IMG/VR virus record: IMGVR_UViG_3300021964_000036
Location: 18,492 to 82,491 of that record
Source: a virus
Length of the DNA stretch: 64,000 nt
Reading direction: 5' to 3' (one strand)
Shown: positions 20,861-42,847 of the stretch, piece by piece
Layout of the letters: each line of letters starts with the position of its first letter
Numbering within the stretch: the stretch's first letter is position 1
Position numbers and translations under genes: made by a program
The notes under the pieces: model-generated
The model's input: only the letters and a program-made list of their open reading frames with translations
Databases searched by the model: none
Told to the model about the DNA's origin: nothing

Positions 20861-21343
20861 TTGAGGTATATTAAAACCATAAACGAATTTTTTGATACTG
20901 GGGTATTTGGCGATACCTATGGATATGGTGGTGCTAATGGTATCTTCAAGGTCCAATATAAACCATATAAAGACCTTTCTGTGTCAGTGGGACCAGATCC
21001 TAATCAAAAAAGAACGGTAAGAGGTTCCCAGTTTCAGGTTGGTGATATTGTGATCGGGGTTCCAGTAGATTCAAAGGAAAAGGTAGCAGGAATGATAGTT
21101 CGTACTGAAAGAACCCCCGATAACAAGTCATATAAGTATTTTGCACAAGTGCATTCTAAGGGGAAGGATACTGAGGAAGTTTTAGAGCTAATTCCAGATA
21201 CCGTGGAATTTGCAGATAATGGTGATAAAGGTCATAAGCAAATTATATCTCATTTCAAGCTAGATACTATGCCTTCGGGTGTTTATAATTCACCAACAGT
21301 TTATAATAATACCAAACTTGGTATAGAAGCAATAGGAAGTTAG
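20861..21343 (+). CDS. Predicted capsid-targeted protein with SH3-like barrel
   Basis: A 160-residue protein whose first nine residues, MRYIKTINE, fit the short basic/hydrophobic leader ending in NE that recurs in this genome and resembles the T4 capsid-targeting peptide. Processing would leave FFDTGVFGD at the N-terminus. A Gly/Tyr-rich stretch follows, then a probable SH3-like barrel (FQVGDIVIGVPVDSKEKVAGMIV ... EEVLELIPDTVEF, about residues 63-125). The start is TTG; no ATG in the N-terminal region would keep the leader. Predicted as an internal head protein, by inference. Confidence 0.62.
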   Translation: MRYIKTINEFFDTGVFGDTYGYGGANGIFKVQYKPYKDLSVSVGPDPNQKRTVRGSQFQVGDIVIGVPVDSKEKVAGMIVRTERTPDNKSYKYFAQVHSKGKDTEEVLELIPDTVEFADNGDKGHKQIISHFKLDTMPSGVYNSPTVYNNTKLGIEAIGS

Positions 21344-21377
21344 AAACTTTCACCTCTTTGCCTGCTAAAACATATTG

Positions 21378-22256
21378 ATGATACTAGGCAGGAATCTTAA
21401 TCAAATAGGATATGTTAATCGAGAATCCTCTTCAACTGCGGAGGGGACTTTTCTTTTTGCACAGGGTGTACTAGATCTCATGAAGGATAATCATGAAAAG
21501 GGAATACCCGTTACCTGCATTGAAATTCCCCAAAATTTTAATAAATTGGATTTTTCTAGTATCGAGGAGGAAAGTAGGGAATCTGATGTTATTTGGTCAA
21601 CGTTCCAGTTTATAAAGTCTAATAGACATAGACTATTTTTCTTTCTCCCTAATTACTTCTTCCTTGGAAGTCAAATTGAGGGGGTGGTAGAAGAAAGTAA
21701 ATCTGTGATTACCGAACTCTCTACTTTTTTAGATCAAATTGGTGTAAAAGAAACTTCTATAATTCTTAGGATAGGTAGCGCATACGGAGCTAGGAAAACT
21801 ACGATGGAAAGGTTTTGTAAGGAGGTTAAGTCTCTTGGTGATACTGTTGTAGAGAAGCTTTCTGTTTGCAATGACGAGAAACCAAGTCTTTTCTCGGTGA
21901 CAGATCTTTTAAGCGGTGTTTTCTATTCTGCTGGCTTGCCAATAGTTTTCAGATTTCTACCTCACCAGTTTAACAGTGGTGGACTTTCCACAAGGGAAGC
22001 TTACTTCTTGGCTGTGTCTACGTGGGTTAAAGGGAAGGTACCTATCTTTATTCATTCTGAATCACGTGAAGTTGACGAAAATGGGGTTTCCCTCTCGCCG
22101 GTACCCTCAGATACATTGTTACATAGAATACCCACTTTTGGGTTAGAAATAGATGTTATCTTAGATATACCAAGTGGTCTTCAGGGATGCTTAGTTTATC
22201 TTGCTAATTATATTTCTCTCAGACCAATGGTAATCAATAAAGTTGGCAGAAAATAA
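21378..22256 (+). CDS. UvdE-like TIM-barrel protein, probably without metal-binding site
   Basis: The order of segments matches UV-damage endonuclease (UvdE/UvsE). GRNLNQIGYVN is at the start. FFLPNYFFLGSQ stands where HPGQF is expected. ILRIGSAYG follows with the RF segment after it, then LSVCNDEKPSLFSVTDLL (for L-ENDD-...-DLL), GLPIVFRFLPHQF (for GIPVVFD-HHH) and IFIHSES. Several metal ligands are substituted: the HPGQF His by Leu, the IHIGG His by Arg, the END Glu by Cys, and the FD Asp by Arg. The fold seems kept while the endonuclease centre is lost. It lies next to two DNA repair genes. I chose the ATG at 21378, one codon after a TTG. Confidence 0.55.
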   Translation: MILGRNLNQIGYVNRESSSTAEGTFLFAQGVLDLMKDNHEKGIPVTCIEIPQNFNKLDFSSIEEESRESDVIWSTFQFIKSNRHRLFFFLPNYFFLGSQIEGVVEESKSVITELSTFLDQIGVKETSIILRIGSAYGARKTTMERFCKEVKSLGDTVVEKLSVCNDEKPSLFSVTDLLSGVFYSAGLPIVFRFLPHQFNSGGLSTREAYFLAVSTWVKGKVPIFIHSESREVDENGVSLSPVPSDTLLHRIPTFGLEIDVILDIPSGLQGCLVYLANYISLRPMVINKVGRK

Positions 22257-22280
22257 TTTTTATTCAACGGCCTCTTTCCT

Positions 22281-22288
22281 TAGTTTTG
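22281..22288 (+). promoter_or_regulatory. Bacteroidota-type -7 box (TAGTTTTG) before glycosylase
   Basis: TAGTTTTG matches TAnnTTTG and ends 14 nt before the ATG at 22303. This implies a very short 5' leader. Confidence 0.5.
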
Positions 22289-22302
22289 TATAAAATCTAA
22301 TT

Positions 22303-23794: not shown

Positions 23795-23818
23795 AATTTC
23801 CTTTTTCTATTTCCTTCT

Positions 23819-23859: not shown

Positions 23860-24651
23860 GTGGGCGCAGTTTTAGATTTTAGTAGATTTGTTTTAAACGA
23901 GGATAAGATTGGTTCTTTCTATAACGATGAACTAAATCCAAAGTTCTGGGACAAATACAAAAACAAGAATGGTGAAACCCAATGGGTCTTTGATAGGCTA
24001 GTAAGAAAAAAGTTGCTTAAGATAGCCGAAGACTTTTACGAAAAATATAGCGATCTATTAGGAGATCTTCCGATTGAGGATATACAACTCACTGGATCAT
24101 TAGCTAATTTTAACTATACTGATAAGTCGGATCTTGACGTTCATGTGCTCGTTGACTTCAATAAGGTAAAGTCAAAACCAGAAATGGTAAAAGCAGCAGT
24201 TGATGGAATTAGGTTTGTTTGGAATCTAAGACATGACGTTGTTATCAGAAATCATGATGTTGAGCTTTATCTCCAGAACATACACGAGCCACATACAGCT
24301 TCTGGTCTTTATTCTCTACTTAATGATAAGTGGATAAGAAAACCAAAGTTTGATCCGCCAGAGGTAGACGAACAAGATGTAAGAAAGAAGTTTGATGGAT
24401 TAGCATCTGAAATTAACCAAATGGAATCCAAACTTGTTACTTCTTCATCCCTTCCCAAGGATGCAAAGGAGATGTATAAAAGGCTTATTCGGTTAAAAGA
24501 AAAGATACAGAAAATGAGAAAAGACGGACTTTCCAAGGACGGAGAATTCTCGATAGGTAACCTCGCCTTCAAAATGCTGAGAAATGAGGGATATATAAGT
24601 AAGCTCATAGATTTAATTTCAAAAGCTTACGCTAGAATTTACTCGGAGTAA
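23860..24651 (+). CDS. Nucleotidyltransferase-fold protein with capsid-targeting-like leader
   Basis: The N-terminus MGAVLDFSRFVLNE fits the F-rich leader ending in NE that recurs here, so the product is predicted to be packaged in the head and trimmed after Glu14. The body carries the NTase-fold signature: LTGSLANFNYTDKSDLDVHVLVDF (Gly-Ser at 79-80, acidic pair DLD at 91-93), with a later acidic strand DVELYLQ (133-139) as third carboxylate. The C-terminal 90 residues are helical (QMESKL ... RLIRLKEKIQKMRKDG). Substrate is unknown; members of this fold transfer nucleotides to RNA, proteins or small molecules. Start is GTG, directly after a T-run. Confidence 0.68.
   Translation: MGAVLDFSRFVLNEDKIGSFYNDELNPKFWDKYKNKNGETQWVFDRLVRKKLLKIAEDFYEKYSDLLGDLPIEDIQLTGSLANFNYTDKSDLDVHVLVDFNKVKSKPEMVKAAVDGIRFVWNLRHDVVIRNHDVELYLQNIHEPHTASGLYSLLNDKWIRKPKFDPPEVDEQDVRKKFDGLASEINQMESKLVTSSSLPKDAKEMYKRLIRLKEKIQKMRKDGLSKDGEFSIGNLAFKMLRNEGYISKLIDLISKAYARIYSE
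24590..24597 (+). promoter_or_regulatory. GATATATA element upstream of 24669 gene
   Basis: Lies within the last codons of the preceding gene, 79 nt before ATG 24669. The longer spacing makes it a weaker candidate than the intergenic copies. Confidence 0.35.
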
Positions 24652-24668
24652 AAACTTTAATTGAAAAT

Positions 24669-27362
24669 ATGTTACTAGTATTTAGAAAAGGACTGGACTA
24701 TAAAGGAAGCATGAACGGCCTTCCTGAAAACCAGGACGAGAACATTTTTCCCATAATGTCAATTCCACTTGATTTAGAGGGTGAAGAAACTGATCTTAAT
24801 GATTTCCAATGGTGGGCTTATACTGACAAGTGGAAGAAATGGTTGGATGCAAATCCAAGAGAATGGAAAGCTGAATCCCACGATGTTAGGTTTGATAAAG
24901 CTGAGCAAATTTTAGAGGCCATAGTAACTTCTAAAAATCCAGTTACTGAATATGTTTCTCATCAAGCTAAATCCTTATGGAACGAGGGTCAAGTTTCTTC
25001 GTTTGCGGATTATGTAAAAATATTGGAAGCAGAAGATTCTTCTGGGTCAAGAGAAGCAACAAAAAAGTTTATAAAACTAGGATATGCTATCGAAAAGCTT
25101 GCAAAAGAAGGCAAGCTTAAGGACATCTTAAATATGGATGATCTGGAGGAAGGTAAACAATATGCTGTAGTTGTTGACCCGATGACCGAGGAGGGAGATC
25201 CAGTTCAAGAGGCAAGGCAAGCTTTAAGACTAAAGAAAATTAGCGAGTCAACTGGTATCGTTGTAGCTGAGGTTGACTATAGCATTCCGTTAGGCGATGT
25301 GGAAGATACTAAGGATTTTATGGACAAGGTCGCAGAATTTGCTAAAGATGTAGCAATAGGCGGTGCAAGCCTTGCTGCTCTGTATGGTGTAGCTCAAGTG
25401 GCTGGAAGTCTTTACTTAGGATGGAGACTTTTAAAAGGAGCACGCGGTATTTATAGAAATTTTGGTAGAGCTAGGAGAATCCACGGAGCTATTTCAAGTG
25501 TAAGAGGTACAGCAGCACCTGCTTGGAACTCTGTCAGACAGTTTGCTACAAGAGCTTTTACTAGGAGAGCAGGGGCACAAGCAGTTGCAAATGCTGCTAG
25601 AATTACTTTGCCTTCTGGTGCATTTGTTGAGGGTGGATTAGCTTATTCTACAAGGGCAACTGGAAATGTATTATTAAAAGGTGCAGCAGCACAATCTACT
25701 AAAGCAGCAGCACAAAGACTAGTAGCTCAAGGTGGGGCAAGAGCGGCAACAGCAGTAGCCGGTAGAGCTGCTACAGCAGCTGGTGCAAGTTCACTCGTTG
25801 CTGCTGAAGCTTCTAATCCGGTTGGTTGGATTATAGCAGCAGCATCTGTAATAGGTTCTGGAATTAATCAACTATGGAATTGGTATAGTGATAAACAAGC
25901 ACCTAGGTACGGTGAAGTTGAGGACTTTGCGTATGGTAGTTTTAATCCTAAAAATATACCGGTTGGAAAATCGATCACTGTTTGTTGGACAAGCGACGGT
26001 GGAGGTGGCGGATGGGGATTCGTTATGGATCTGTTGACTTTTTCTAAGGATGATACTAGGACAACTATGGAATTAGTCAAGCTTGGTGAGTTTAATGATA
26101 GATCGGTCTTTGTGATGCTTCAGGTAAACTCTGAAATGTTTGAAAAGACAATGAAGGATAATGACCTTATACTTCTTTCCTTTGCCAACAACGATTCTTT
26201 TGAAAGAGGAACATTTGATAACGATGATTTGGAATTCCAAACTATTATTATACCAGATGTGTCTGAACTTACAATTGCTACATCATTTGTGGGTTATTCA
26301 ACATGGGATGAAATGAAAGAGGCATATAAAGCAAGTCCAGACAGTCCTATTTACGTACCAAGCGGAGCAAGAAAGGACTACCAATTCCACTACACCGATG
26401 CGGACGGAAACGACGTAAATGTAACAGGAACACTCGTAAATGAAAATGAAATAAGCGATACAGTCTTACAGGATTTAGTTCCAGGTGCAGCTGGTGCTGT
26501 TGATGAATCTGCTACTTCTGGTCTAGATTACTCACACTTAGTAAACGAAAGTAAGGTCCTATCATTCAAGGACTTCTCAATTAGAACTAATCCTATAATG
26601 GAAGAAGACGCTGCCAATGCGGAGGATGCTGAAAATACAGAAAATGCAGAGGGTGCTGAATCTGCAGAAGAGAATACTTATGAGGACGATTTACTAACCT
26701 CTGTTTCTGCTGCATCTGCTTTGGAGGCAGAGTACAGTCAAATCCCAGTGTTAGCATATAGGGTTAATACAATAAGTTTTGTTGACCCAACTGTTAATGA
26801 GAACGTTGATCAATTCAACTACTTTATAATTGGTGAGCAAAGTATGGATCCTAAGATAAATCAGCCAATCTTAGTTGAATCCGCTTCCGAAGCTGGTATT
26901 GAAGATCCAAGATTTGGTTTAAAAACTTATGTCCCACCTGCACCCGAAGAGGATGATAAGGATGAAGAAGCCCCAGAGGTTGAAGACACTGAAGTAATCG
27001 ACATTGAAGGGGTGGATGAGCCATCTTCAAAATCTGTACAAACTGCTAGGGGTGATGTCCAGATCAAAAGTAAAACAGGTTCTTTAACAATTAAAGATAG
27101 AGATATGGAAGGTGGCATAAACATCTTTGATGAATTTGCTACAAGTGATCTTAAGAAAGACCTAAACATAGGAGATTGGAAAAACATCACTAGTGTGAGA
27201 GTCAGATACGATAAAGACGAGGAACCAATTAAGGTAGTGCTTAAAAATAGGTTCGCTAAAGCTGGTGATAAAAGAAGGGTAATCAGAAAAGGAGAGCAAG
27301 GATTTGATTCAGCTCTAAGTTTTGCTGAAACCGTAGAAGGGGGTATATCTTTCTCCGGATAA
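24669..27362 (+). CDS. Large virion-type protein with hydrophobic Ala-rich central region
   Basis: A 897-residue protein. Residues 1-220 are soluble, with a Trp-rich opening. From about 225 to 410 there is an unusually Ala/Gly/Arg-rich, partly hydrophobic region. It includes two likely membrane-seeking stretches (VAIGGASLAALYGVAQVAG; NPVGWIIAAASVIGSGIN). A beta-rich middle domain follows, then near residue 627 the segment HLVNESKVLSFKDF, which contains the NE-S site, then acidic low-complexity and a basic final domain. Placed directly before the prohead protease and capsid genes, it may be an internal head or ejection protein able to enter membranes. Family not recognised. Confidence 0.65.
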   Translation: MLLVFRKGLDYKGSMNGLPENQDENIFPIMSIPLDLEGEETDLNDFQWWAYTDKWKKWLDANPREWKAESHDVRFDKAEQILEAIVTSKNPVTEYVSHQAKSLWNEGQVSSFADYVKILEAEDSSGSREATKKFIKLGYAIEKLAKEGKLKDILNMDDLEEGKQYAVVVDPMTEEGDPVQEARQALRLKKISESTGIVVAEVDYSIPLGDVEDTKDFMDKVAEFAKDVAIGGASLAALYGVAQVAGSLYLGWRLLKGARGIYRNFGRARRIHGAISSVRGTAAPAWNSVRQFATRAFTRRAGAQAVANAARITLPSGAFVEGGLAYSTRATGNVLLKGAAAQSTKAAAQRLVAQGGARAATAVAGRAATAAGASSLVAAEASNPVGWIIAAASVIGSGINQLWNWYSDKQAPRYGEVEDFAYGSFNPKNIPVGKSITVCWTSDGGGGGWGFVMDLLTFSKDDTRTTMELVKLGEFNDRSVFVMLQVNSEMFEKTMKDNDLILLSFANNDSFERGTFDNDDLEFQTIIIPDVSELTIATSFVGYSTWDEMKEAYKASPDSPIYVPSGARKDYQFHYTDADGNDVNVTGTLVNENEISDTVLQDLVPGAAGAVDESATSGLDYSHLVNESKVLSFKDFSIRTNPIMEEDAANAEDAENTENAEGAESAEENTYEDDLLTSVSAASALEAEYSQIPVLAYRVNTISFVDPTVNENVDQFNYFIIGEQSMDPKINQPILVESASEAGIEDPRFGLKTYVPPAPEEDDKDEEAPEVEDTEVIDIEGVDEPSSKSVQTARGDVQIKSKTGSLTIKDRDMEGGINIFDEFATSDLKKDLNIGDWKNITSVRVRYDKDEEPIKVVLKNRFAKAGDKRRVIRKGEQGFDSALSFAETVEGGISFSG

Positions 27363-27401: not shown

Positions 27402-27427
27402 AAGTTAAATAATAGTAAAGTCAAGAA

Positions 27428-29434
27428 ATGAACGAGTCTTTATTGAATGAAAATCTCCTCTTTATCCTTGAAAAGCAAGATAATAGTCTTTCTGTCAACG
27501 ATAAAAACGAAGATGGCTATGTACTCAAAGGTATAGCAGCACAATTTGGAAAGGAGAATAATAATAACAGAATCTATGAGGAAGGTGAATACCTACCCCA
27601 TTTGGAGTACCTAAAAGATAAGATAGGTCAGAAAAGATTGGTTGGTGAATTAGACCATCCTGAAAAATTCGATGTTTCTCTTAAGAACATTTCTCACGTT
27701 GTTGAAGACCTTGTTTATGATAAAGACGGAAGAGTATTAAATATTAAGGTTCGTTTGCTTGACACACCAGCTGGACAAATTGCTAAGAAGCTAGTTGATG
27801 CTGGTATCCCTCTTTCTATTTCATCTAGAGCAGCTGGAAATGTTGGTCCTGATAAGAAGGTCCAAATCAAAAAAATCTTTACATACGATCTAGTAGCAGA
27901 TCCTGGTTTTCAGGATGCTCAACTTGAAAGAGTTTACGAGAGTGCTGGTTTTGATGCTTTTGAATTTCAAGAAAGGTCAAAGAAGTCAATCGTAAACAAC
28001 TTAGAGTGTGTAAACGAATCGCTAGGTTTAGAAAATGAATCTGGAGTGAAGATATATAAAGTTGAAAATAGCGAAGAATTCGAAAAAATCCTTAATCAAG
28101 ACAAAAATAAATCCAACATTATGGAGGCCAACAAAGAATATGTTACTGCTGACGAGCTTAATAAGTATTCTATCTTTTTGAAAAATAAGATGGATGAGCT
28201 TGAAACGCAGATTTCTGAAATGAAACAACAAGAAACTCAAGTTTCTGAAAGTGAAAACGACAGTGTAGACTGTAAAGCGCTCGAGGAAAGGGTTGCTAAA
28301 TTAGAGAAGTACTCCGAGTATCTTGCTGAAAATCTAGAAAGCGCTATCAAGTACGGCGAGTATTTGGCAGAAAATCTAGATAGCAGCATTACTTATTCTA
28401 AGTATCTTGCTGAGAATTTAGACAAGACTATCTCTTATTCAAAGTATTTGGCCGAAAATGTTGATAAGGGTATTTCTTATACCGAATATGTAGCTGAGAA
28501 TGTTGATAAGTCTATTGATTATTCTAAGTATTTAGCAGAAAAACTAGACGATGGTATTCAATACACAGAATACGTGGCTGAAAATCTTGATAAGAATATA
28601 GCTTACTCTGAGTATCTAGCAGAAAATGTTGATAAGAACATTGCTTATTCTGAGTATTTGGCAGAGAATCTTGATAAGGGTATTTCTTACTCTGAATATC
28701 TTGCAGAGAACTTGGATAAAGGAATCGCTTATTCTGAGTACATCGCAGAAAAATTAGATCAAGGCATTAATTACACAGAGTATCTTGCTGAAAATCTAAA
28801 CAAAGGTATCGCTTATTCCGATTACCTAGCTGAAAAGCTCAATGGCAATATTGCTAACACTGAAGCTCTTCACGAAAGCGCAAAGACAGAAAAAACTCCA
28901 ACACTAAACGAAAGTGCTAGAGAAAATGCTGAAAGCGCATCTAAAACTGAATTGGTTGAATCAGGATTTGCTGGAGATTATGAAAATCTCGGAAGCAAAA
29001 TTGATTCTCTAATTGAATCAGTCAAAACACAAAAGACTGAGGAAAATATAAACGAGGCACAAACGAAAGTTATGCCGACTGCTCAAACACAAAAAGCAGA
29101 TGAGGCAATCAACGAAGCCAAAGAAGAAAAATTGGTAGAGTCATCAGGTCACAAGTTTATTGATGAAATGCCAGAAGATTACGCTCCGTTATGGGAGTCA
29201 CTAAATGAAAGCCAAAAGCAATCAGTGATTGCACAATCAGCTTTCTATAACTTAGAGACTACATATCAGATCAAGAATTTCTGGTCAACACGTCAGCTTG
29301 GTGCTAAACCAGTGGGACTTCAGAAACTTCAAGAGAGCCAAGAAACACCAGAGCCTAAGACGGCTACAGCCCCTCAGGGGTATTCAAATGATTACCTTAA
29401 TTGGGTCGCTAAGTCGCTCGAAGGTAAGTTTTAA
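27428..29434 (+). CDS. 21: Prohead protease (gp21-like) fused to repeat-containing scaffold
   Basis: Residues 1-200 match T4-type prohead proteases, which cut scaffold and capsid proteins during head maturation. RLVGELDHPEKFDVSLKNIS carries the catalytic His (about 77), and AGIPLSISSRAAGNV the catalytic Ser (about 130-133). FTYDLVADPGFQDAQ follows. The rest resembles the assembly core: a helical region, 13 tandem 14-residue repeats (295-476), then segments with several candidate cleavage sites (LNESA, INEAQ, INEAK, LNESQ). T4 encodes protease and scaffold separately, so the fusion is notable. An in-frame ATG at 28121 could produce the scaffold alone. The N-terminus MNESLLNENLL itself has candidate self-cleavage sites. 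Confidence 0.88.
   Translation: MNESLLNENLLFILEKQDNSLSVNDKNEDGYVLKGIAAQFGKENNNNRIYEEGEYLPHLEYLKDKIGQKRLVGELDHPEKFDVSLKNISHVVEDLVYDKDGRVLNIKVRLLDTPAGQIAKKLVDAGIPLSISSRAAGNVGPDKKVQIKKIFTYDLVADPGFQDAQLERVYESAGFDAFEFQERSKKSIVNNLECVNESLGLENESGVKIYKVENSEEFEKILNQDKNKSNIMEANKEYVTADELNKYSIFLKNKMDELETQISEMKQQETQVSESENDSVDCKALEERVAKLEKYSEYLAENLESAIKYGEYLAENLDSSITYSKYLAENLDKTISYSKYLAENVDKGISYTEYVAENVDKSIDYSKYLAEKLDDGIQYTEYVAENLDKNIAYSEYLAENVDKNIAYSEYLAENLDKGISYSEYLAENLDKGIAYSEYIAEKLDQGINYTEYLAENLNKGIAYSDYLAEKLNGNIANTEALHESAKTEKTPTLNESARENAESASKTELVESGFAGDYENLGSKIDSLIESVKTQKTEENINEAQTKVMPTAQTQKADEAINEAKEEKLVESSGHKFIDEMPEDYAPLWESLNESQKQSVIAQSAFYNLETTYQIKNFWSTRQLGAKPVGLQKLQESQETPEPKTATAPQGYSNDYLNWVAKSLEGKF
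28051..28058 (+). promoter_or_regulatory. Internal GATATATAAAG element inside protease-scaffold gene
   Basis: This in-gene copy has the same extended form (GATATATAAAG) as the intergenic copies at 23830, 27394 and 38815. It lies 70 nt before the in-frame ATG 28121. It may give a separate transcript for the scaffold part. Confidence 0.4.
28121..29434 (+). CDS. Nested scaffold product from internal start (putative)
   Basis: The in-frame ATG at codon 232 of the protease-scaffold gene is preceded by an A-rich leader like those of real starts in this genome (ACAAAAATAAATCCAACATT). A product from here would be 437 residues: a short lead, a coiled region, the 14-residue repeats and the C-terminal part without the protease. 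This is the arrangement known from the lambda C/Nu3 overlap, where the scaffold is made in excess from an internal start. It is inferred from layout only. Confidence 0.4.
   Translation: MEANKEYVTADELNKYSIFLKNKMDELETQISEMKQQETQVSESENDSVDCKALEERVAKLEKYSEYLAENLESAIKYGEYLAENLDSSITYSKYLAENLDKTISYSKYLAENVDKGISYTEYVAENVDKSIDYSKYLAEKLDDGIQYTEYVAENLDKNIAYSEYLAENVDKNIAYSEYLAENLDKGISYSEYLAENLDKGIAYSEYIAEKLDQGINYTEYLAENLNKGIAYSDYLAEKLNGNIANTEALHESAKTEKTPTLNESARENAESASKTELVESGFAGDYENLGSKIDSLIESVKTQKTEENINEAQTKVMPTAQTQKADEAINEAKEEKLVESSGHKFIDEMPEDYAPLWESLNESQKQSVIAQSAFYNLETTYQIKNFWSTRQLGAKPVGLQKLQESQETPEPKTATAPQGYSNDYLNWVAKSLEGKF
28310..28855 (+). repeat. 13 tandem 42-bp coding repeats (14-residue unit)
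   Basis: The consensus unit is YSEYLAENLDKGIS, repeated 13 times without interruption at residues 295-476 of the protease-scaffold protein, with variation at the third base and at a few residues. Two helical heptads per unit are implied (YSEYLAE, NLDKGIS), giving a long regular coiled or helical rod. Copy number may vary between related phages. Confidence 0.92.
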
Positions 29435-29459: not shown

Positions 29460-31181
29460 ATGAAACTAATCAACGAAGCAGAAATCTTCGAAACCTGGTC
29501 TCCTATCATCGAGCAGAAGGCTGGAATTCAAGATGCTGAGAAAAAAGGATGGTTGAGCAAGTACTGCCACTACCATTCATTAAACGAGTCTGCTGGTGCA
29601 TATCAGTCACTAGCAACTGTAAACGGTATGGGTGCCGTAGCTCCACCCGCATACCCAGGTGGGTATAACTCCACTGGTTCTGCAGTAGGTACGCAAGCAA
29701 ACGCTGCTTTCTACAACGCTGCTAACCAAGGTTCAGGAGATAAGTTTCCTTCACTTCTTCCTTTGGCAATTCAGGTTGCTGCGAAGACAGTTGGATTCGA
29801 TATCGTTCCTGTAATTCCTATGTCAGGTCCTACTGGCGTACTTTCTTACCTAGATTACGTATACTCAGGTGGTAAAATCAGTCCTGCATCTGCTGGCGCA
29901 TCTGCTGCTGAAGCCCTTGCAACTGCACCTTCTATGATCAAGGTAGAATTGACAAACGCTGCAGCAGGATATCCTGGTAACTTTGCAGTAGGTACTACTT
30001 ACTACATCACTAACGCTTCTTCAGCTGGTGCTTACATCACAACTGAATTTGTTGGTCTTTCTAGAATCGATGGTTTCCCAATCTTCAGAATCGTTGGATT
30101 AACAGCTGGTGAAACTGTTTCTGCAGTTCTTGATGGCGGTGCTACTAAAATTGGTACTGCAGTAGATGGAAACCAAGCTGGTACTACAACTGCAAGAGCA
30201 GAATTGGTTAAAGCTCTTGAGGATCACATCCAAGGATTCTCTGGTGCTGGTTTTAACAACGACCAAGACTGGCAAGGACCATTCGTAGATGGTACTAAGA
30301 CTTACAACCCAATGCTAAGAGGTGTAGGTGAAAGCACTTACTACCAATCAATGGGTCTATCAACGTTCACTAAGTTCGTTGAAGCTGATACTTTCCAAGT
30401 AGCTGCTTCAGTAACTACTGAACAGATCCAAGACCTTAACAAGCAATTCGGTATCGACGTAATTTCTATGATCGAGAACGCATTGGTTAATGAGGTATCT
30501 CAAGCTATTAACAAGCACATCCTATCTAGAGCATTCGCTCTTGGTTGGTCTAACCACGATGAATTCTTGACTACAGAAGGTCAGAACTTGAACCTAAACC
30601 TCGTTATCGGTGGTACTGCTGGTTCATACACTATTCCTTCTTACGTAGGTAAGTCTGACACTGGTATCTCTATCGCTTCTGTTGCAGGTCCTGCTTCAGG
30701 TGGATACGAGAACTTGTCAACTCTACAGAGAAGACTATTCTCTAGAATTCTAGCTGGTGCTAACGTAGTAGCTAACAGAGGAAGAAGAGGTCCTGCTAAC
30801 TTCATCGTTACTAACGCTAACGTTGCAAGTGCATTGCAAGACATCTCTCAGTTCACTTTTGCACCTTTCTCTAACACACTAACTCAAAACAACGGTACAC
30901 TTTACCCAGTAGGTTCGCTTGCAGGTATGACTGTTTATGTTGATCAGAACATGAAGTTCGGTGATAACAGAGTATTAGTTGGTAGAAAAGGTGGTGACGA
31001 CGAACCAGGACTTAAGTTCATGCCTTACATGATGGCTGAGTCTATCCAAACAATCTCTGAGGGTACTATGTCACCTAAGATTGCGGTTAAGTCTCGTTAC
31101 GCTCTAGTAGAAGCTGGTTTCCACCCAGAAACTATGTACTTCTGTTTCCACGTGAACGTTCCTGCTGGAGGTCTATCCTAA
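29460..31181 (+). CDS. 23: Major capsid protein, T4 gp23-like
   Basis: The main shell subunit, 573 residues (T4 gp23: 521). Its place after protease/scaffold and the HK97-fold segments support this: FPSLLPLAIQVAAKTVGFDIVPVIPMSG, STFTKFVEADTFQVAASVTTEQIQD, NRGRRGPANFIVTN, and AGMTVYVDQNM. The N-terminal 43 residues end in HSLNE followed by SAGAYQ, so prohead processing after Glu43 is likely. A second candidate site is LINE-A at the start. Codon choice differs from neighbours, with C-ending codons (AAC, TTC, ATC) preferred, as expected for a very highly expressed gene. A strong terminator follows. Confidence 0.95.
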   Translation: MKLINEAEIFETWSPIIEQKAGIQDAEKKGWLSKYCHYHSLNESAGAYQSLATVNGMGAVAPPAYPGGYNSTGSAVGTQANAAFYNAANQGSGDKFPSLLPLAIQVAAKTVGFDIVPVIPMSGPTGVLSYLDYVYSGGKISPASAGASAAEALATAPSMIKVELTNAAAGYPGNFAVGTTYYITNASSAGAYITTEFVGLSRIDGFPIFRIVGLTAGETVSAVLDGGATKIGTAVDGNQAGTTTARAELVKALEDHIQGFSGAGFNNDQDWQGPFVDGTKTYNPMLRGVGESTYYQSMGLSTFTKFVEADTFQVAASVTTEQIQDLNKQFGIDVISMIENALVNEVSQAINKHILSRAFALGWSNHDEFLTTEGQNLNLNLVIGGTAGSYTIPSYVGKSDTGISIASVAGPASGGYENLSTLQRRLFSRILAGANVVANRGRRGPANFIVTNANVASALQDISQFTFAPFSNTLTQNNGTLYPVGSLAGMTVYVDQNMKFGDNRVLVGRKGGDDEPGLKFMPYMMAESIQTISEGTMSPKIAVKSRYALVEAGFHPETMYFCFHVNVPAGGLS

Positions 31182-31276: not shown

Positions 31277-32377
31277 ATGAGGAAATTGAACTCACATAAG
31301 CAATTCCTTTTGGAAAGGGACCTTTCTATTGAGGTGGATCAGGTAGTATTAACGGAAATGCTCCTTGACTATTATGATATTAATGAAGGAAAGGCTTTGG
31401 ATACTATTAAAAATTCTGTCTCTAAGGCTTTATTTGGCCCCTTTTCTAGATTATCAGTAATAGATACCATAAGGAAGGGAAATTTAGACATCCAGAAAGA
31501 AATCATCACCAAAAGATATGATCTGGAGGATGAGATATTGGATTTAGATGGAAAAATAGAAGACTTAAGAAGAAGTGGTTCTTCAAGAAACGAAATCTCA
31601 AGAATACAAACACAAATTGATCGTAAAAGGAGAGAATACAAATCTTTTGTTCAAATGAAAAAAGAACAAACGAATAAGGGTATGAAGCTTCTTGAAAAAA
31701 CCATAGGTAAAAATCCTAGGAGAAAGGAATATTACGAAGCTGGTTTTTTAGACGATAAGTATGAATTAGCAAAATTTGAATATGAACTTGCGCAAAAGAA
31801 ATCTGCTGATCCTGGGGATGTAAAAGAACTAAAGAAAGATCTTGAGGATGCATCAAAGAAAGCAGAATCTTTCGTTGCCAACATTAAAAGCTCAGCTCAG
31901 ACCAAAACTAGAATAAAGGACTCAGAGCTTGAGGATATATCAGCTCTTAGAAAAAAGATAAGTGCAAAGGATACTGGGGTAATTGTTTCTTTAAGGGAGA
32001 AATCTAAAGAACGTGTAAATGAATTAAAATCACAAATGGGGAAGACGCTCCAGAATATGAAATCTTTTATGTCAAAATCCCCATCGTATGATGAAGTAAA
32101 ATCCTCTGGCAAAATATCTAATGGCATAAAAGATTTAGAATCAAAAGCCAATGAGGTGGATGCTTTAGAGAATCTTGTTAAAGTATATTCAGATTCGATA
32201 GCATCTAAGGATAAATCTCTTTCCAGCGAATCCGCATTAACCAATCTTTTTAGCAAGATAAATTCAGCTATTGCTGATGGCAATGATGCTGGGTCTGGTA
32301 TAACTAAAGATATTATAGATATGAAATCTGATATTACACTTAAAAAGATCAGTAACCTAATAAAAAAATTAGTCTAA
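31277..32377 (+). CDS. Coiled-coil protein, predicted internal head protein
   Basis: A 366-residue, highly charged helical protein. The N-terminus MRKLNSHKQFLLERDLS fits the basic, F-containing leader type, and a clear [IV]NE site appears slightly later in YYDINEGKALD (Glu37). Long coiled-coil segments follow (about residues 65-135 and 160-330), rich in Lys, Glu and Ser. It is first in a group of four genes behind the capsid gene that share this style. No enzyme motif is seen. Packaging into the head is inferred from the leader and the location. Confidence 0.7.
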   Translation: MRKLNSHKQFLLERDLSIEVDQVVLTEMLLDYYDINEGKALDTIKNSVSKALFGPFSRLSVIDTIRKGNLDIQKEIITKRYDLEDEILDLDGKIEDLRRSGSSRNEISRIQTQIDRKRREYKSFVQMKKEQTNKGMKLLEKTIGKNPRRKEYYEAGFLDDKYELAKFEYELAQKKSADPGDVKELKKDLEDASKKAESFVANIKSSAQTKTRIKDSELEDISALRKKISAKDTGVIVSLREKSKERVNELKSQMGKTLQNMKSFMSKSPSYDEVKSSGKISNGIKDLESKANEVDALENLVKVYSDSIASKDKSLSSESALTNLFSKINSAIADGNDAGSGITKDIIDMKSDITLKKISNLIKKLV

Positions 32378-32378: not shown

Positions 32379-33272
32379 ATGCTTCTGAAATTTAAAGAGT
32401 GGGAATCACACAATATTAATGAAAAAGATGCCAGCATTGATAAGATCATGAACTGGCTAAGTTCCAATTTTGGTGGTACTATATCAAAGATAGATAGTTT
32501 GCTCGCAGACATTAATTCTATTGAATCACAATATTCAAAAGATTGGAATGATATTCAAACTGACATAGATGCACTGGAAATAAAGAAAGCTCAAACAAAA
32601 AGTGATCCTGCAGAATCTAAAAAGCTAGAAAGGATGATTGATAGAAATCAAAAACTAGTTGTTGCTTTGAATAAAAAGAGAAAAGCTGATATTGATAAGA
32701 TTGATAATAAGGTCGAAAAGCTTACTAAGGGTAAGCAAAGACTAGTATCATATTGGAACCTTAAAAAATCTGAATTGGAAGCTGATCTTGCTGAGAAGAT
32801 GTATAAGATGGCAAAAGATTTAACAGATGAATCCATTGCAGACGATCTTTATGACAAATATAAGGAGGCAGCTCTCCAAGCAAAAGCTAAGGATGAGAAA
32901 TTTAGGGAAAAGTTTGGTAAACTGGAATTAGCTAAACCGTCTACATTAAAACAAGATGCTGAAACTAAAGCCATATCTGGTTCTAATTTTTCAATGGATC
33001 CTATCTTCTCCATGAATGCTCCACAGTTTACTAAGTTTGTACAAGACCTTGAAAAAAGTCAAGTTAGTGCTTTAATTAAAGCAATGCAGTCTGAAAGGAA
33101 TGAAAGATATGCAACTTTAGATACCGAAAGAGATAGACTAGAGGCGCAAGCAAAAAAGAAAGGCCTTTCTTCGGATAGCGTCAAAAAGGACCTTTCGGAC
33201 CTCAGAGAAACCTTGATGAGGCAGATAAGAGATTTAAGAACTAAAATAACTATTGCTAGAAGGTATGCATAA
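32379..33272 (+). CDS. Coiled-coil protein with capsid-targeting-like leader
   Basis: A 297-residue, Lys/Glu/Asp-rich helical protein starting 1 nt after the previous stop. The first 15 residues, MLLKFKEWESHNINE, match the recurring leader, with processing expected after Glu15. Coiled-coil is likely over most of the rest (notably 45-165 and 215-290). It is similar in style to its upstream neighbour but without obvious sequence repeats between them. Probably an abundant internal head protein; function otherwise unknown. Confidence 0.7.
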   Translation: MLLKFKEWESHNINEKDASIDKIMNWLSSNFGGTISKIDSLLADINSIESQYSKDWNDIQTDIDALEIKKAQTKSDPAESKKLERMIDRNQKLVVALNKKRKADIDKIDNKVEKLTKGKQRLVSYWNLKKSELEADLAEKMYKMAKDLTDESIADDLYDKYKEAALQAKAKDEKFREKFGKLELAKPSTLKQDAETKAISGSNFSMDPIFSMNAPQFTKFVQDLEKSQVSALIKAMQSERNERYATLDTERDRLEAQAKKKGLSSDSVKKDLSDLRETLMRQIRDLRTKITIARRYA

Positions 33273-33534
33273 TCACATCAAGAGCTTAAACGATTTCCCC
33301 CTTTTTGAAGGTGTGAACGAGGACCTTGTAAAAGCAAAGGCTGACGTTAATGCTAAGCAAGCAGAAATTGCTGAAGAGATAGCTAAGCAAAAAGAAACAA
33401 CTGATCTAAAGGAAAAAGCGGCAAGCATTAGAAACCAGGCAAGATTAACAGGACAGATGCCAGGTCTATTAAATGCTTTAGCAAACGCTATGGACGCAAA
33501 GGCTGATTCCGGAGATACAACAAATATTTACTAA
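33265..33534 (+). CDS. Small capsid-targeted helical protein
   Basis: An 89-residue protein. I chose the ATG at 33265, which overlaps the upstream stop by 8 nt, instead of the TTG at 33253; this puts the leader MHNHIKSLNDFPLFEGVNE at the N-terminus. Removal of the leader after Glu19 would leave a 70-residue Ala/Lys/Glu helical peptide. Its size and style recall the small internal proteins of T4 (IPI-IPIII), which carry a similar cleaved leader and are injected with DNA. The actual role is unknown. Confidence 0.68.
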   Translation: MHNHIKSLNDFPLFEGVNEDLVKAKADVNAKQAEIAEEIAKQKETTDLKEKAASIRNQARLTGQMPGLLNALANAMDAKADSGDTTNIY

Positions 33535-33536: not shown

Positions 33537-35930
33537 ATGGCAAATAATTATCTTAAAAGAAACCCAGTAGCAAATCAGATGTCAATTGAGACATTTAGAT
33601 TGTTCGAAAATCAAGATGTTGATAAGGCTTTAGAGATATCTGTAAATACCCTATTAAGTCTATATAAGAAACTTACGTTCGATTTAGCCTCTGATAGGAA
33701 CAGAACTTTTGACTCCTTTTCTAAGAAGTTAATAACTGTTAGTGATGCTTCTTCAATTAAGTCATTAGTTGCTAACATTAAGGATGTCTGCGAAGACGTT
33801 GATCTTTCTGATAGTGTTCTTGCACCATTAAAGAAAAGGTATTTAGATTCTATTGATATGGTAGGGGATGCTATTAAGAGAATGATAGAATTAGATCCTT
33901 CGTTAGAAGCAAAGGCTATTGAATATTTTAAGAAGTCGAGTAAGGTCTTAATGGAAACAATTAAAAGGGTAGCAGACCAATACAAAGAGAAACTTAACGA
34001 GTCTACTGCAATTGGTGTACCTGGAAGAATGGAGAGGTTAAAGAGAATCCTTTTAAACCATATTGTTGATTCGAAGGGAAAGGATGCTAAGTCAGGATAT
34101 GGTAGGGACTGGCATCGCTTGTTCTCAACATTAGAGCAGAAGCTTTCTGCAATTAATAGTGATAAGGCAACATTTTCTGATGCTGATAGAAAAAACTTGT
34201 CGGAGCTTGAAAAAAAGACTGATAGTCTTGTACAGGAGTATAATCAATATAAGGTTAGAGCTGTTGAGACAATGATGTCCAAGATATTAAAGGACTCTGA
34301 TCTGGAAGCTAAGTTTTCTGATTTTATTGAAATAATGACAAATGCCCTAGATGGAGTTACAAAATCTAACACTGAAGAAGGGTTAATTGAGGTAAAGGTT
34401 AGAGAGAACCTTGATGACAAAGAAACTAGGATGCAAGATAGAGTATTCCCATTAAAGGCGGGTGATAAAGACAATGATGCTAAGCTAAAGGGGTCGGGGT
34501 TAATCCAGGCTATTCAAAAGTCTCTAATTGATGCATTTGTACCTATCAAAAATCTTTTAGATCCAAGAGGAGGTGCAAACGGAAACTTTGATACCTCCAT
34601 GGGAGTTGCTGTCAAATCTATTCAGGCTTCACTGGGTAATAAGGATGTAAGTGGTAAATTAGATAAGCCACTCTTAGATGTTATCCTCAAGTTGGACCAA
34701 GTATCGTCTGAAAACAAGGACTCTATTAAGGAAGCTATTGGAAAACTTAGGGTTTCATATTCTACTCTTAGTGAATCCGGTAATGCGTTAAGTGTTAGCG
34801 AGTTTATGAGATTGATGGAAGCAATGACCTATATTGATCCGAATGAAATTGAGGATAAGATTAAGCTTTATAGTGAAGAAATAACGGAGGATGATGAATC
34901 AATGTCACAGCCGACTACTTCTGATTATTCTATGGCAGAGGCATTAGCAAAACTTCTTAGAACAAAGAACTACAATAAGAATGCAGAAGCAGAAGATTTC
35001 CTTAAAGAAGACGGTACACTAAAAGGATCTTGTCCTCACGATTTTGTTAGTGGTTGGACAAAAGCTATCTCTGGGGATAAGCCAGTTTCGTTCTTCTTTA
35101 TAGAGGACGAGGAAGGCGGATCCCTTTACCCAACAAAGAGAATTTCTGGTAATGTAAACAAGCCATGTAACTGGAAAAGATATAAATCCATATCTGGAGA
35201 CGAAACGGAAGACATCCACAAGTTTGGAAAGTGGTATACCACATACTGGAAAAACTTTGGTGGCGTTGGCTCCGAAATCAAAGGAAAGGTACTTGATGAT
35301 GTAATGAAATCAAATTGCTCTTTAGCAAAGGAGGAAAAATTGGATGACGTTGTTACAATTTATGAGGAGCTAGAAAATTCTTTTATGCCACATAAGGAAG
35401 AAATTTGTCATGGCTACCTTAGACCTGAATCAATGAAAGGCATATGCTCCAGCGTAAAAGGAATGATGGGTAATGACGGAATAGATAATTTAAGCCCTAG
35501 CGAACTTAGATCTCTTTATAACACTGTGGTCGTAACATCCCCTCTTATTACATTTGACAAAGAAAATGACGAATGGGTTCCTGCTTTAAATATGTTATGT
35601 AAGAATTTGAATATATCTGAAGACGAGCTAATTTCTGGCATTAAGAAGAACGGATCCCTAGGGAAATCTGGAAAGATGAGTGCTGAAAAAATTGCTTACC
35701 TGGACACAAGACCTAACCAAGACTCCAACAACAATGAGATTCTAAAGTCTACAATTCTGGGAAGTACAGAGGACCCTGAGAAGGTTGCAAATATGAAGTC
35801 TACCTTGGATAAGATTAAATCGATAACAAAGAGTCTTTCCAAACACACAAAAAGAATTGGAATCTCCAAAAGCGATGACATAAGTCCGGATGTTTCGGAT
35901 TCTATGGTTATCATTACGATGGAGAGGTAA
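33537..35930 (+). CDS. Large predicted internal head protein with peptidoglycan-binding-like segment
   Basis: A 797-residue protein in the internal-protein cluster. Near the start, MSIETFRLFENQDVDK (from residue 15) fits the F-rich leader style less strictly. Residues 1-310 are helical, with KLNESTAIG (about 152-160) as a possible cleavage site. Around residues 320-400 the pattern GSGLIQAIQKSL ... GANGNFDTSMGVAVKSIQASLG ... SGKLDKPLLDVI resembles PG_binding_1 domains (NG-F-x-T-x-x-AV-x-x-Q). The C-terminal part has scattered cysteines (SCPHDF, KPCNWKRY, SNCSLAKE, EICHGY). It may be delivered with DNA and touch the cell wall, but this is speculative. Confidence 0.65.
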   Translation: MANNYLKRNPVANQMSIETFRLFENQDVDKALEISVNTLLSLYKKLTFDLASDRNRTFDSFSKKLITVSDASSIKSLVANIKDVCEDVDLSDSVLAPLKKRYLDSIDMVGDAIKRMIELDPSLEAKAIEYFKKSSKVLMETIKRVADQYKEKLNESTAIGVPGRMERLKRILLNHIVDSKGKDAKSGYGRDWHRLFSTLEQKLSAINSDKATFSDADRKNLSELEKKTDSLVQEYNQYKVRAVETMMSKILKDSDLEAKFSDFIEIMTNALDGVTKSNTEEGLIEVKVRENLDDKETRMQDRVFPLKAGDKDNDAKLKGSGLIQAIQKSLIDAFVPIKNLLDPRGGANGNFDTSMGVAVKSIQASLGNKDVSGKLDKPLLDVILKLDQVSSENKDSIKEAIGKLRVSYSTLSESGNALSVSEFMRLMEAMTYIDPNEIEDKIKLYSEEITEDDESMSQPTTSDYSMAEALAKLLRTKNYNKNAEAEDFLKEDGTLKGSCPHDFVSGWTKAISGDKPVSFFFIEDEEGGSLYPTKRISGNVNKPCNWKRYKSISGDETEDIHKFGKWYTTYWKNFGGVGSEIKGKVLDDVMKSNCSLAKEEKLDDVVTIYEELENSFMPHKEEICHGYLRPESMKGICSSVKGMMGNDGIDNLSPSELRSLYNTVVVTSPLITFDKENDEWVPALNMLCKNLNISEDELISGIKKNGSLGKSGKMSAEKIAYLDTRPNQDSNNNEILKSTILGSTEDPEKVANMKSTLDKIKSITKSLSKHTKRIGISKSDDISPDVSDSMVIITMER

Positions 35931-38799: not shown

Positions 38800-38809
38800 A
38801 TTGTGTTCT

Positions 38810-38836: not shown

Positions 38837-38839
38837 ATA

Positions 38840-39520
38840 ATGGCTAATAATATTAAATCATTTAGTGATTTTAAATCTGCTAGCGTTTCTGATGTGAACG
38901 AGAACTGGGTTTCTGATCTTTTGGGATACGCTGGTGGAGCATTCAGTGACGTACTTAAAGGAAAAGCTTCTGCTTATCTAATGAGTTTTTTCGGCATTGG
39001 TGAACAATCTATATTTAGTAAGCTTGTACAAAACTTTGTAGAACAAATTCCAATTGCAGATCTTACTAAAATCATATTTGCTGGTAAGGCTAATTCAGCT
39101 TATTTAGCTCCTAAGATGGCAGATGCAACTATAGAATTCCTATCAGAAAAAGGTTTGGATGGTATTGCACAGGATCTTCATATCGACCCTTCAGGTTGGA
39201 TATACAGGACCCTTTCAGAAATCGTAAGCAACCAAGCAAGAAGAGAAAACTTTAGAGAGCAATTGGTCGGATTTTATTTACAAGCATTTAATGGATTTGA
39301 AAGCCCAGATATGGATGAGTTTAAAAATTCGTTATCCCCAATGGAAACAAGAAGCCTGGAAAAAGGTTTAGAGGATGTTGCTAGAAGGTCTGGAGGAGAT
39401 ATAAACATTACACCAAGCGAAGGTGGTGCAGATTTAGTCACTAACTTTTTAAGTGGATTAGTTGGAAATGGACAATCAATGCAATCACTGGGGCTTAGCA
39501 CTGGGGGAACAATTCAATAA
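38840..39520 (+). CDS. Predicted capsid-targeted protein
   Basis: A 226-residue protein starting at ATG 38840, just after a GATATATA element; an upstream TTG of the same frame (38801) would lie before the promoter. The leader MANNIKSFSDFKSASVSDVNE ends in NE at residue 21. The body begins with a Gly-rich amphipathic stretch (LLGYAGGAFSDVLKGKASAYLMSFFGIGEQS), which may interact with membranes, and continues helical to a Gly/Ser-rich end. No known enzymatic motif is visible. Predicted to be packaged and possibly injected. Confidence 0.68.
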   Translation: MANNIKSFSDFKSASVSDVNENWVSDLLGYAGGAFSDVLKGKASAYLMSFFGIGEQSIFSKLVQNFVEQIPIADLTKIIFAGKANSAYLAPKMADATIEFLSEKGLDGIAQDLHIDPSGWIYRTLSEIVSNQARRENFREQLVGFYLQAFNGFESPDMDEFKNSLSPMETRSLEKGLEDVARRSGGDINITPSEGGADLVTNFLSGLVGNGQSMQSLGLSTGGTIQ

Positions 39521-39532
39521 AATATTTAGACC

Positions 39533-39901: not shown

Positions 39902-39926
39902 AATTCTAGCTATTACATTACATTTA

Positions 39927-39959
39927 AAGACAAGTTTCTTTTGAAACTTGTCTTTTTTG
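39927..39959 (+). terminator. Strong Rho-independent terminator
   Basis: AAGACAAGTTTC pairs perfectly with GAAACTTGTCTT around TTTT and is followed by a T-run. It ends the 38840-39901 unit. Confidence 0.93.
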
Positions 39960-39987
39960 TTTGCTATAAATCATATAAGCAAATCTG

Positions 39988-40656: not shown

Positions 40657-40657
40657 T

Positions 40658-41386: not shown

Positions 41387-41411
41387 GGTGGAAGAATTAT
41401 GTTTGTTACTC

Positions 41412-41419
41412 TATATATT
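41412..41419 (-). promoter_or_regulatory. AATATATA element on the minus strand
   Basis: Read on the minus strand, the octamer starts 33 nt before ATG 41386. That is inside the 25-37 nt window seen for the plus-strand GATATATA copies, with A replacing the first G. Confidence 0.45.
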
Positions 41420-41467
41420 GTCCCCTGGGTATACTTCTTGACTTTAAAAGAACCTGTTTAGTTGCGT

Positions 41468-41475
41468 GATATATA
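41468..41475 (+). promoter_or_regulatory. GATATATA late-type promoter element
   Basis: Begins 32 nt before ATG 41500. Divergent from the minus-strand element at 41412. Confidence 0.65.
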
Positions 41476-41499
41476 ATACATAAAAAAAGTGGTCACAGT

Positions 41500-41937
41500 A
41501 TGCCAAGGATAGACGATTATATTTCATTTAGCTCTAGTAAGAAAAACAACGTTTCTAGCGAGTTTTCTTTCTCCAAAGAATTAGGTATGCTGGATGTCCA
41601 AATTGTAAACAGACCACCAGAAATTTCAGACGTAGATTCTCTTGAACTTGAAATAGAATACAAGGTTTCAATTGCAAGAAGAAAGGACGGTATACAGGAT
41701 TTGGATTTTATGGTTGAAAGTATGGAACTTGAAATAAAAGTCGATGATTACCCTAACGAGCAAAAGGAATTTGAGTTTGATATTGTTCCTGATGTTAATA
41801 TTGCAATACCTTCTGTTGTGATCCAAAAGGGTTCAAGACTAGTTCCAACAGATCCAACATTTGCAAGAATTGATATGAGAAAATCAATGAACCCAAAAGA
41901 CTTCAGAATACAAATACTCTTTGGCAGTAATGAATAA
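41500..41937 (+). CDS. Hypothetical beta-rich protein in head/internal-protein group
   Basis: A 145-residue acidic protein. The opening MPRIDDYISFSSSKK loosely resembles the leader style but has no NE site. The remainder is strand-rich (for example LDVQIVNRPPEI, LELEIEYKVSIARR, MELEIKVDDY, FEFDIVPDVNIAIPSVVI). No enzyme motif is seen. It shares a transcription unit and an 8-nt overlap with the predicted capsid-targeted protein at 41930. Confidence 0.68.
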   Translation: MPRIDDYISFSSSKKNNVSSEFSFSKELGMLDVQIVNRPPEISDVDSLELEIEYKVSIARRKDGIQDLDFMVESMELEIKVDDYPNEQKEFEFDIVPDVNIAIPSVVIQKGSRLVPTDPTFARIDMRKSMNPKDFRIQILFGSNE

Positions 41938-42847
41938 GGCTTTGAACTTTGCCCAGTTTGGTAAAATAAACGAATCACTCTCAATATCAAAAAAAGATGT
42001 TGGGTTAATTGGTCCCAATATGGATGGGGAAATTAAGCTGAGAATTCCTAATCCTGGCATAACTTTAAAAAGAATAGATGACGGGGAGAATTACGTCTTT
42101 GAGATAGGAGAAAAATCTTGTTCGGTCCCTAAAAAATTCATTTCATTATCAACCCAACCCGGTTATGACATTGTTTCGTTTAATACTAACACTAATTGGT
42201 TTAAACAGGAAAATAATTCGGAAAGAATCTCTGATGTGATTGAAGAATTCCTCACATCTCAGTATAAAAGTCTGTCTAAAAGTAGCGACCCAATTAAGGA
42301 TGACGTTAACATTATTTTGGATGCTTTTGGTATTGAGGATGATGTTACAGCATTCAATTCCAATTCACCATTACAAATGGATGGACAGACACAAAACGGG
42401 ATGGAGTTTGAGATAGAGAAAGAAACTTCGGAGGATCTCTTTAAAAAGTTTTTTTTGTATAAGGATATTGACTCAATACATCCCATGATTTCTATTAAGA
42501 GGAAGGGAGCAAGATTCAATTGTATCTATAGAACACCAAAGGGAAACTTTGAATGTAAGCATGATTCTATTGATGAGATGCTAAATAGCCCAACTGATAA
42601 GTATCTTATGTCAGTTTGCATTGGGAATGAATCGGAGGAAAATCAAAGAAACCTTGTGGATCACTTGATGAGGCTTTTCAAATATCATTCCTGGGATAAA
42701 GCAGATTCGAAAGCGAAAGCAAGCAAAAATGCAGAGGAGAGGAAAGAGATTAAGAAGATAATGAATATTCTCAAAAACACTATCTCCGAGGACCATATTG
42801 GGGAGATGTACTCTGATGCAAGGTCTAAATTCATGGGTAACAGGTAA
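41930..42847 (+). CDS. Predicted capsid-targeted protein
   Basis: A 305-residue protein from ATG 41930, which overlaps the upstream stop by 8 nt; the frame's TTG at 41921 is less likely. The leader MNKALNFAQFGKINE (NE at 14-15, followed by SLS) matches the recurring type well. The body has a small beta-rich N-terminal part (ITLKRIDDGENYVFEIGEKSC). Acidic and hydrophobic segments follow (ISIKRKGARFNCIYRTPKGNF, about 187-207), and a helical C-terminus. Function unknown; packaging into the head is predicted from the leader. Confidence 0.68.
   Translation: MNKALNFAQFGKINESLSISKKDVGLIGPNMDGEIKLRIPNPGITLKRIDDGENYVFEIGEKSCSVPKKFISLSTQPGYDIVSFNTNTNWFKQENNSERISDVIEEFLTSQYKSLSKSSDPIKDDVNIILDAFGIEDDVTAFNSNSPLQMDGQTQNGMEFEIEKETSEDLFKKFFLYKDIDSIHPMISIKRKGARFNCIYRTPKGNFECKHDSIDEMLNSPTDKYLMSVCIGNESEENQRNLVDHLMRLFKYHSWDKADSKAKASKNAEERKEIKKIMNILKNTISEDHIGEMYSDARSKFMGNR

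What the first reader, a model, noticed from the sequence alone, without database searches (positions are those of the whole stretch)
20861..42847. Family of proteins with a short leader ending in [ILV]NE: predicted capsid-targeted cargo
At least seven proteins of different folds start with a short, F-containing, basic/hydrophobic peptide ending in NE: MRYIKTINE (20861), MGAVLDFSRFVLNE (23860), MLLKFKEWESHNINE (32379), MHNHIKSLNDFPLFEGVNE (33265), NIKSFSDF...DVNE (38840), MNKALNFAQFGKINE (41930). Less strict cases are at 31277, 33537 and 39533. The capsid protein has SLNE-S at residues 40-44, the scaffold has several NE-S/NE-A sites, and the 6406 protein has SVNE-S. In T4 the internal proteins carry a similar cleaved leader and are injected. 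The same motif in shell and cargo points to one protease and one packaging signal for a whole set of possible host-directed effectors.
Basis: partly seen in the sequence, partly recalled or inferred. Interest (0 to 1): 0.82.

Follow-up and report, generated by a model that had tools for sequence, protein, structure and literature searches.

The report
Capsid-targeting leaders across huge phages
A huge-phage lineage, probably infecting Bacteroidota, appears to mark dozens of unrelated proteins, including whole enzymes, with a short removable start tag like the one phage T4 uses to load its internal proteins, so the tag predicts from sequence which proteins travel inside the virus head.

Summary
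In an 82-kb fragment of a T4-like huge phage, seven ORFs in and near the head module carry an N-terminal leader: Met, an aromatic pair spaced FxxF, a spacer of 0-10 residues, then [I/L/V]xE, often followed by a small residue. [quoted passage not shown] The layout matches the T4 capsid targeting sequence. A gp21-type protease, a gp23-type capsid protein and a conserved [LI]xE capsid propeptide site are present.

The system is far larger than the window: about 50-70 leader proteins in relatives of 373-434 kb (roughly 10% of ORFs). Mature parts are mostly unrelated and include adenylate kinase, a RimK-type ligase, a MoxR-like ATPase, a DnaQ-like exonuclease and peptidoglycan enzymes. LR756500 and phage PAU use their own leader dialects.

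Corrections: 33265 is cut at LFE, not VNE; 20861 is weak; 39533 is not a case. New: 24669 carries an internal leader flanked by two cleavage sites. Packaging, cleavage and injection remain predictions.

The parts
23860..24651 (+). Leader protein: leader 23860-23901 (MGAVLDFSRFVLNE|D), then a nucleotidyltransferase-like domain with GS...DLD motif
   Evidence: A3 alignment: P1 Glu at least 90% conserved, P3 I/L/V, spacer varies; weak NTP_transf_2 match; leader low-confidence in the model
32379..33272 (+). Leader protein: leader 32379-32423 (MLLKFKEWESHNINE|K), coiled-coil-like mature part
   Evidence: 50 distinct N-termini in homologues keep F..W or F..[WY] and [ILV]NE; rank 6 of 79
33265..33534 (+). 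Leader protein: leader 33265-33309 (MHNHIKSLNDFPLFE|G); the VNE at residues 17-19 is not the conserved site
   Evidence: Homologue comparison; rank 3 of 79
33537..35930 (+). Leader protein: leader 33537-33608 (...MSIETFRLFE|N)
   Evidence: F.L[NFY]E|N in homologues; rank 4 of 79
31277..32377 (+). Leader protein with two candidate sites: LLE|R at residue 13 (31277-31315) or INE|G at residue 37 (to 31387)
   Evidence: Both conserved in homologues; rank 7 of 79
38840..39520 (+). Leader protein: leader 38840-38902 (MANNIKSFSDFKSASVSDVNE|N), helical mature part
   Evidence: A4: F11 invariant, E21 at least 90% conserved; rank 1 of 79; residues 1-23 below pLDDT 50
41930..42847 (+). Leader protein: leader 41930-41974 (MNKALNFAQFGKINE|S)
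   Evidence: Rank 2 of 79; homologues in all ten relatives tested
20861..21343 (+). Doubtful leader protein: MRYIKTINE|F (20861-20887)
   Evidence: [IL]xE conserved but FxxF half variable and next residue unusual
26544..26606 (+). Internal leader in ORF 24669-27362: VNE|SKVLSFKDFSIRTNPIME|E, residues 625-645, predicted cuts after E627 and E645
   Evidence: Same arrangement at 65-75% of the length in about two thirds of 47 distinct full-length homologues
27428..29434 (+). Prohead protease (gp21/S77 type) joined to a scaffold-like region with repeated L/V-AE-N/K units, many of which fit the cleavage motif
   Evidence: phrog_207 1.3e-32; Peptidase_S77 7.6e-7; T4 gp21 match 2.0e-5
29460..31181 (+). 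Major capsid protein (gp23 type) with propeptide 29460-29588 ending SLNE|S
   Evidence: PF07068 9.6e-41; [LI]xE conserved at the boundary in relatives including T4

Best explanation
The leaders are capsid targeting sequences of the T4 type. The aromatic pair (FxxF or FxxW, after a start such as MKxIK) docks the protein on the prohead core, probably on the scaffold-like part of ORF 27428. The cargo is enclosed as the gp23-type shell assembles. The gp21-type protease then cuts after [I/L/V]xE, the motif it also cuts in the capsid protein and scaffold. This frees the mature cargo inside the head, from where part of it is probably injected with the DNA. In this lineage the signal sits on some 50-70 proteins per genome, so it works as a general loading tag for a changing set of cargoes. 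Shown by sequence: the tag, its statistics, its conservation, its agreement with T4 internal proteins, the protease and the capsid site. Inferred: core binding, cleavage, packaging, injection.
For: Held-out profile ranks the seven window ORFs 1-7 of 79 and T4 IPI, IPII, IPIII 1-3 of 248. Literature places targeting at T4 IPIII residues 4 and 7 and processing at 8 and 10, with gp21 cutting after L/I-X-E (PMC9026906); the leaders have the same layout. Excess over decoys with near-chance controls. P1 and P3 conserved while P2 and spacer vary. S77 protease and gp23 capsid protein present with [LI]xE at the capsid boundary. 183 leader proteins fall into 99 mature clusters, and the leader precedes complete known folds.
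Against: No proteomic or biochemical data. Not every relative with the protease has leader cargo (PTm1, MaF61, S-PM2). The cargo is acidic on average (-2.4 per 100 aa), unlike the basic T4 internal proteins. Endolysin-like cargo is unexpected inside a head.
Confidence: 0.83

Rival explanations
1. The leaders are core-docking and maturation peptides of structural inner-head proteins only: the window proteins build the prohead core and inner body, and nothing is delivered to the host.
For: In the window all seven lie in or near the head gene block and are conserved across relatives; coiled-coil-like composition of 31277 and 32379.
Against: In relatives most leader proteins lie outside the head block, are lineage-specific and include complete enzymes.
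Confidence: 0.2
2. The N-terminal peptide is a sorting signal for another compartment (membrane, assembly site or phage-made body), and the [IL]xE triplet is incidental or is cut by a host protease.
For: Some cargo are cell-wall enzymes; targeting and cleavage have not been observed.
Against: No hydrophobic core as in a secretion signal; layout and profile match T4 internal proteins; P1 Glu is conserved and agrees with the capsid site.
Confidence: 0.1
3. The enrichment is chance or composition bias, or a single diverged gene family.
For: [ILV]NE alone is common in these proteomes.
Against: Decoys, shuffles and altered triplets; 99 mature clusters; in G001, 109 similar N-terminal pairs against 5 and 2 at internal positions; held-out ranking.
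Confidence: 0.02

Closest known systems
Phage T4 capsid targeting sequence of IPI, IPII, IPIII (and the shorter Alt propeptide), processed by gp21
   Same: Short N-terminal peptide, aromatic pair spaced by three, optional spacer, [IL]xE then a small residue; gp21-type protease; gp23 site of the same kind; mature parts unrelated to each other
   Different: About 50-70 proteins instead of a handful; Asn favoured at P2; complete enzymes as cargo; an internal doubly flanked copy in ORF 24669; cargo not basic
Phage P1 DarB N-terminal packaging signal
   Same: An N-terminal signal loads an injected anti-restriction protein into the head (PMC9024508)
   Different: That paper found no consensus among Dar N-termini; a different head system
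Propeptides of phiKZ-like giant phages such as SPN3US
   Same: Inner-head and ejected proteins cut after Glu by a gp21-related protease (PMC5694885)
   Different: Motif A-X-E (S/A/G-X-E in phiKZ) and mostly propeptides longer than 100 residues, without a shared FxxF leader
Sphingomonas phage PAU N-termini MKT[LI]xxLYE (own analysis)
   Same: 19 proteins share N-termini but not mature parts; many have LNE|[AS]; gp154 is annotated as internal capsid protein
   Different: A separate dialect, LxxLYE instead of FxxF

Membership tests
T4-type capsid targeting sequence | N-terminal peptide of about 10-20 residues | tested here: met
   Most leaders end at residues 9-25
T4-type capsid targeting sequence | Aromatic targeting residues spaced by three (Y4 and F7 in IPIII) | tested here: met
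   F at 0 and F/W/Y/H at +3 are the strongest profile positions; the profile finds T4 IPI-III first
T4-type capsid targeting sequence | L/I-x-E cleavage motif | tested here: met
   P3 I/L/V and P1 Glu conserved in families
T4-type capsid targeting sequence | gp21-type protease and gp23-type capsid protein with a propeptide site of the same kind | tested here: met
T4-type capsid targeting sequence | The peptide is sufficient for packaging and is removed in the head | not testable with these tools
   Needs virion proteomics or reporter fusions
T4 internal proteins as a protein family | Small basic injected proteins | tested here: not met
   Mature cargo averages -2.4 net charge per 100 aa, median full length 206 aa
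T4 internal proteins as a protein family | Injected into the host with the DNA | not testable with these tools
   Inferred only by analogy
phiKZ/SPN3US-type propeptides | S/A/G-X-E cleavage and mostly long propeptides | tested here: not met
   P3 is L, I or V and leaders are mostly 9-25 residues

The most novel reading that the evidence does not exclude
These huge phages run a proteome-wide loading code: a lineage-specific N-terminal tag, plus an internal copy cut on both sides, delivers about 10% of the encoded proteins, including complete enzymes that could act on nucleotide pools, ribosomal protein S6 and the cell wall, into the host with the genome before any phage gene is expressed.
Probability: 0.45. 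Interest if true: 0.9.

Novelty: new variant of a known kind. Interest (0 to 1): 0.77.

Why it matters
Most huge-phage genes have no known function. If the tag is a packaging signal, it sorts virion cargo from cytoplasmic proteins by sequence alone, names dozens of candidate early takeover or counter-defence proteins (T4 IPI blocks a type IV restriction enzyme; T4 IPIII is needed on E. coli strain ECOR17, PMC9391042), and extends a handful of T4 examples to a general protein-delivery code with readable dialects. One virion N-terminomics experiment would test it directly.

Tried and rejected
Rejected: chance enrichment and one diverged gene family. 'NE' as the essential motif was replaced by [ILV]xE. 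A single leader-plus-promoter cassette: leader DNA is shared between unrelated genes only in three pairs (83-86%), and their upstream DNA is not alike. The nucleotidyltransferase-like 23860 could not be placed beyond the pol-beta superfamily: best PDB matches (a CdnE c-di-GMP synthase, AadA) have TM-scores near 0.24, too low to use. The model of 38840 is low confidence (mean pLDDT 65), so no fold search was made with it. The leader-bearing DnaQ-like protein found no PDB relative by sequence. PADLOC gave two matches for 76 leader proteins. Ligase-like proteins with KMDGSAF match the regex and were removed as false positives. One literature search for virion proteomics of PAU or Tenacibaculum phages found none.

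Full report
What the window is. It is bases 18492-82491 of an 82,491-bp viral record. Upstream lie the large terminase and tail sheath; inside are two adjacent portal-type proteins, a gp21-type protease joined to a scaffold-like repeat region, and a gp23-type major capsid protein. Relatives by capsid protein are metagenomic contigs of up to 434 kb; named matches include huge phage LR756500, Prevotella Lak phages, Tenacibaculum PTm1 and PAU. The host is therefore probably a member of Bacteroidota (inference).

Observation. The quoted N-termini are real. In the related loci [ILV]NE is about ten times more frequent in residues 1-20 than in most of the rest of the protein. With the aromatic pair included, five genomes show about 8- to 13-fold excess over internal 30-mers and 8- to 18-fold over shuffled N-termini, while EN, KE, NK and ND in place of NE stay mostly near chance. 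P2 prefers Asn (67 observed, 7.3 expected), but Phe and Ser are also enriched.

Profile. I built a position-specific score (nine positions around FxxF, spacer 0-10, then P3 to P1'). At threshold 12 it finds 89 of 1033 ORFs in G001 and G003 against 3.6 expected. Iterated, at threshold 11, it lists 79, 54, 23, 20 and 7 proteins in G001, G003, G005, G008 and the window record. At 13 or more, G001 has 69 of 614 ORFs and G003 50 of 500. These are ORF-caller counts with a few per cent false positives; G005 and G008 are incomplete. The T4 N-termini read from the record are MKTYQEFIAE|A and MKTFKEFTSTTTPVSTITE|A. Mutational work on IPIII placed targeting at residues 4 and 7 and processing at 8 and 10, and gp21 cuts after L/I-X-E (PMC9026906). 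The megaphage leader has the same layout.

Conservation. In the 23860 family (45 sequences, 27-98% identical to the window protein) the P1 Glu is at least 90% conserved, P3 is I/L/V, P2 is almost any residue, and the spacer varies. In the 38840 family F11 is invariant and E21 at least 90% conserved. The capsid protein has [LI]xE at the propeptide boundary in the relatives compared: SLNE|S here, ELYE|N in LR756500, ALME|N in PAU, IINE|S in PTm1, FLTE|A in T4, GLNE|A in KVP40.

Cargo. 183 leader proteins form 99 clusters by mature sequence, 33 of them in two or more genomes with the leader kept although its own sequence has diverged. Aligning 76 leader proteins of G001 gives the consensus MxxIxxFxxFxNE followed by almost nothing. 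Pfam and PHROG matches include adenylate kinase (3.9e-39), RimK-type ATP-grasp ligase, MoxR-like AAA ATPase, a DUF2201 metallopeptidase domain, class-I glutamine amidotransferase, RNase_T/DnaQ exonuclease, and SLT, CHAP, YkuD and OmpA peptidoglycan proteins; the second set also has a Zn_protease match. In adenylate kinase and RimK the known fold begins at residues 24 and 27, after the leader, so the tag is an add-on to a complete enzyme. AlphaFold models are least confident over the leader in 23860 (segment 9-16) and 38840 (1-23). Leader genes cluster: 23 adjacent pairs in G001 against 7.6 expected.

An internal leader. ORF 24669 has VNE|SKVLSFKDFSIRTNPIME|E at residues 625-646. The arrangement [LI]xE|S - SFxDF - [LI]xE recurs at the same relative position in about two thirds of 47 distinct full-length homologues. 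This suggests a protein cut on both sides of an internal targeting segment into a large N-terminal and a smaller C-terminal product. I know of no such arrangement in T4; Alt is trimmed at both ends (PMC5694885).

Dialects and absences. LR756500 has 29 leader proteins at a threshold where none is expected, in the form MKYIxEYEEFLxE; without any model, 71 of its proteins share N-termini but not mature parts. PAU has 19 such proteins, mostly MKT[LI]xxLYE, 11 of them in the 100-120 kb piece that also holds its protease and capsid genes, including gp154, which its depositors called an internal capsid protein. KVP40 has a few. PTm1, MaF61 and S-PM2 show none. Lak-A1 shows a small group, MNKxIKKLLESLFDD, whose cleavage residue is unclear.

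Mechanism and its limits. The simplest reading is the T4 one: targeting to the core, enclosure, cutting by the shell protease, release in the head, then injection of part of the cargo. Only sequence evidence is available. For the window's own proteins a structural inner-head role is as likely as an effector role. Of 5.39 million open-access papers, 15 hold the phrase 'capsid targeting sequence'; those opened concern T4, P1 and SPN3US, and none of the 15 titles concerns these huge phages, so the extent reported here looks new within what I could search. Subscription papers were not covered.

Noticed in passing
window 10910-12529 and 12540-14141: Two adjacent genes both match the portal family phrog_213 (6.3e-58 and 1.1e-60): two portal-type paralogues side by side.
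   Followed up: no
window 39533-39901: A strongly conserved small protein with LDFDQF near the N-terminus and AVNESFSIKRLEDF at its C-terminal end, a possible site and docking segment at the wrong end.
   Followed up: no
window 27428-29434: Protease and scaffold-like region in one ORF, with many repeats of the type YSEYLAENLDKGIA, most of which contain an [LV]AE triplet that fits the cleavage motif.
   Followed up: partly
L090:10745-14521 (G001): Neighbouring unrelated genes share almost the same leader (MKHIxTFxQH[IV]NE); leader DNA 83-86% identical, the following DNA not alike.
   Followed up: partly
L210, L202, L216 (Prevotella phage Lak-A1): Several unrelated proteins start MNKxIKKLLESLFDD under code 15, perhaps another leader dialect with a different or absent cleavage residue.
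   Followed up: no
L132:17114-18577 and related RimK-type loci: A RimK-type glutamate ligase with a leader occurs in all four large relatives examined; a Zn_protease (RimB-like) match also appears among leader proteins.
   Followed up: no
window 40658-41386, - strand: The only long minus-strand gene of this region, 242 aa, unknown, between leader genes.
   Followed up: no
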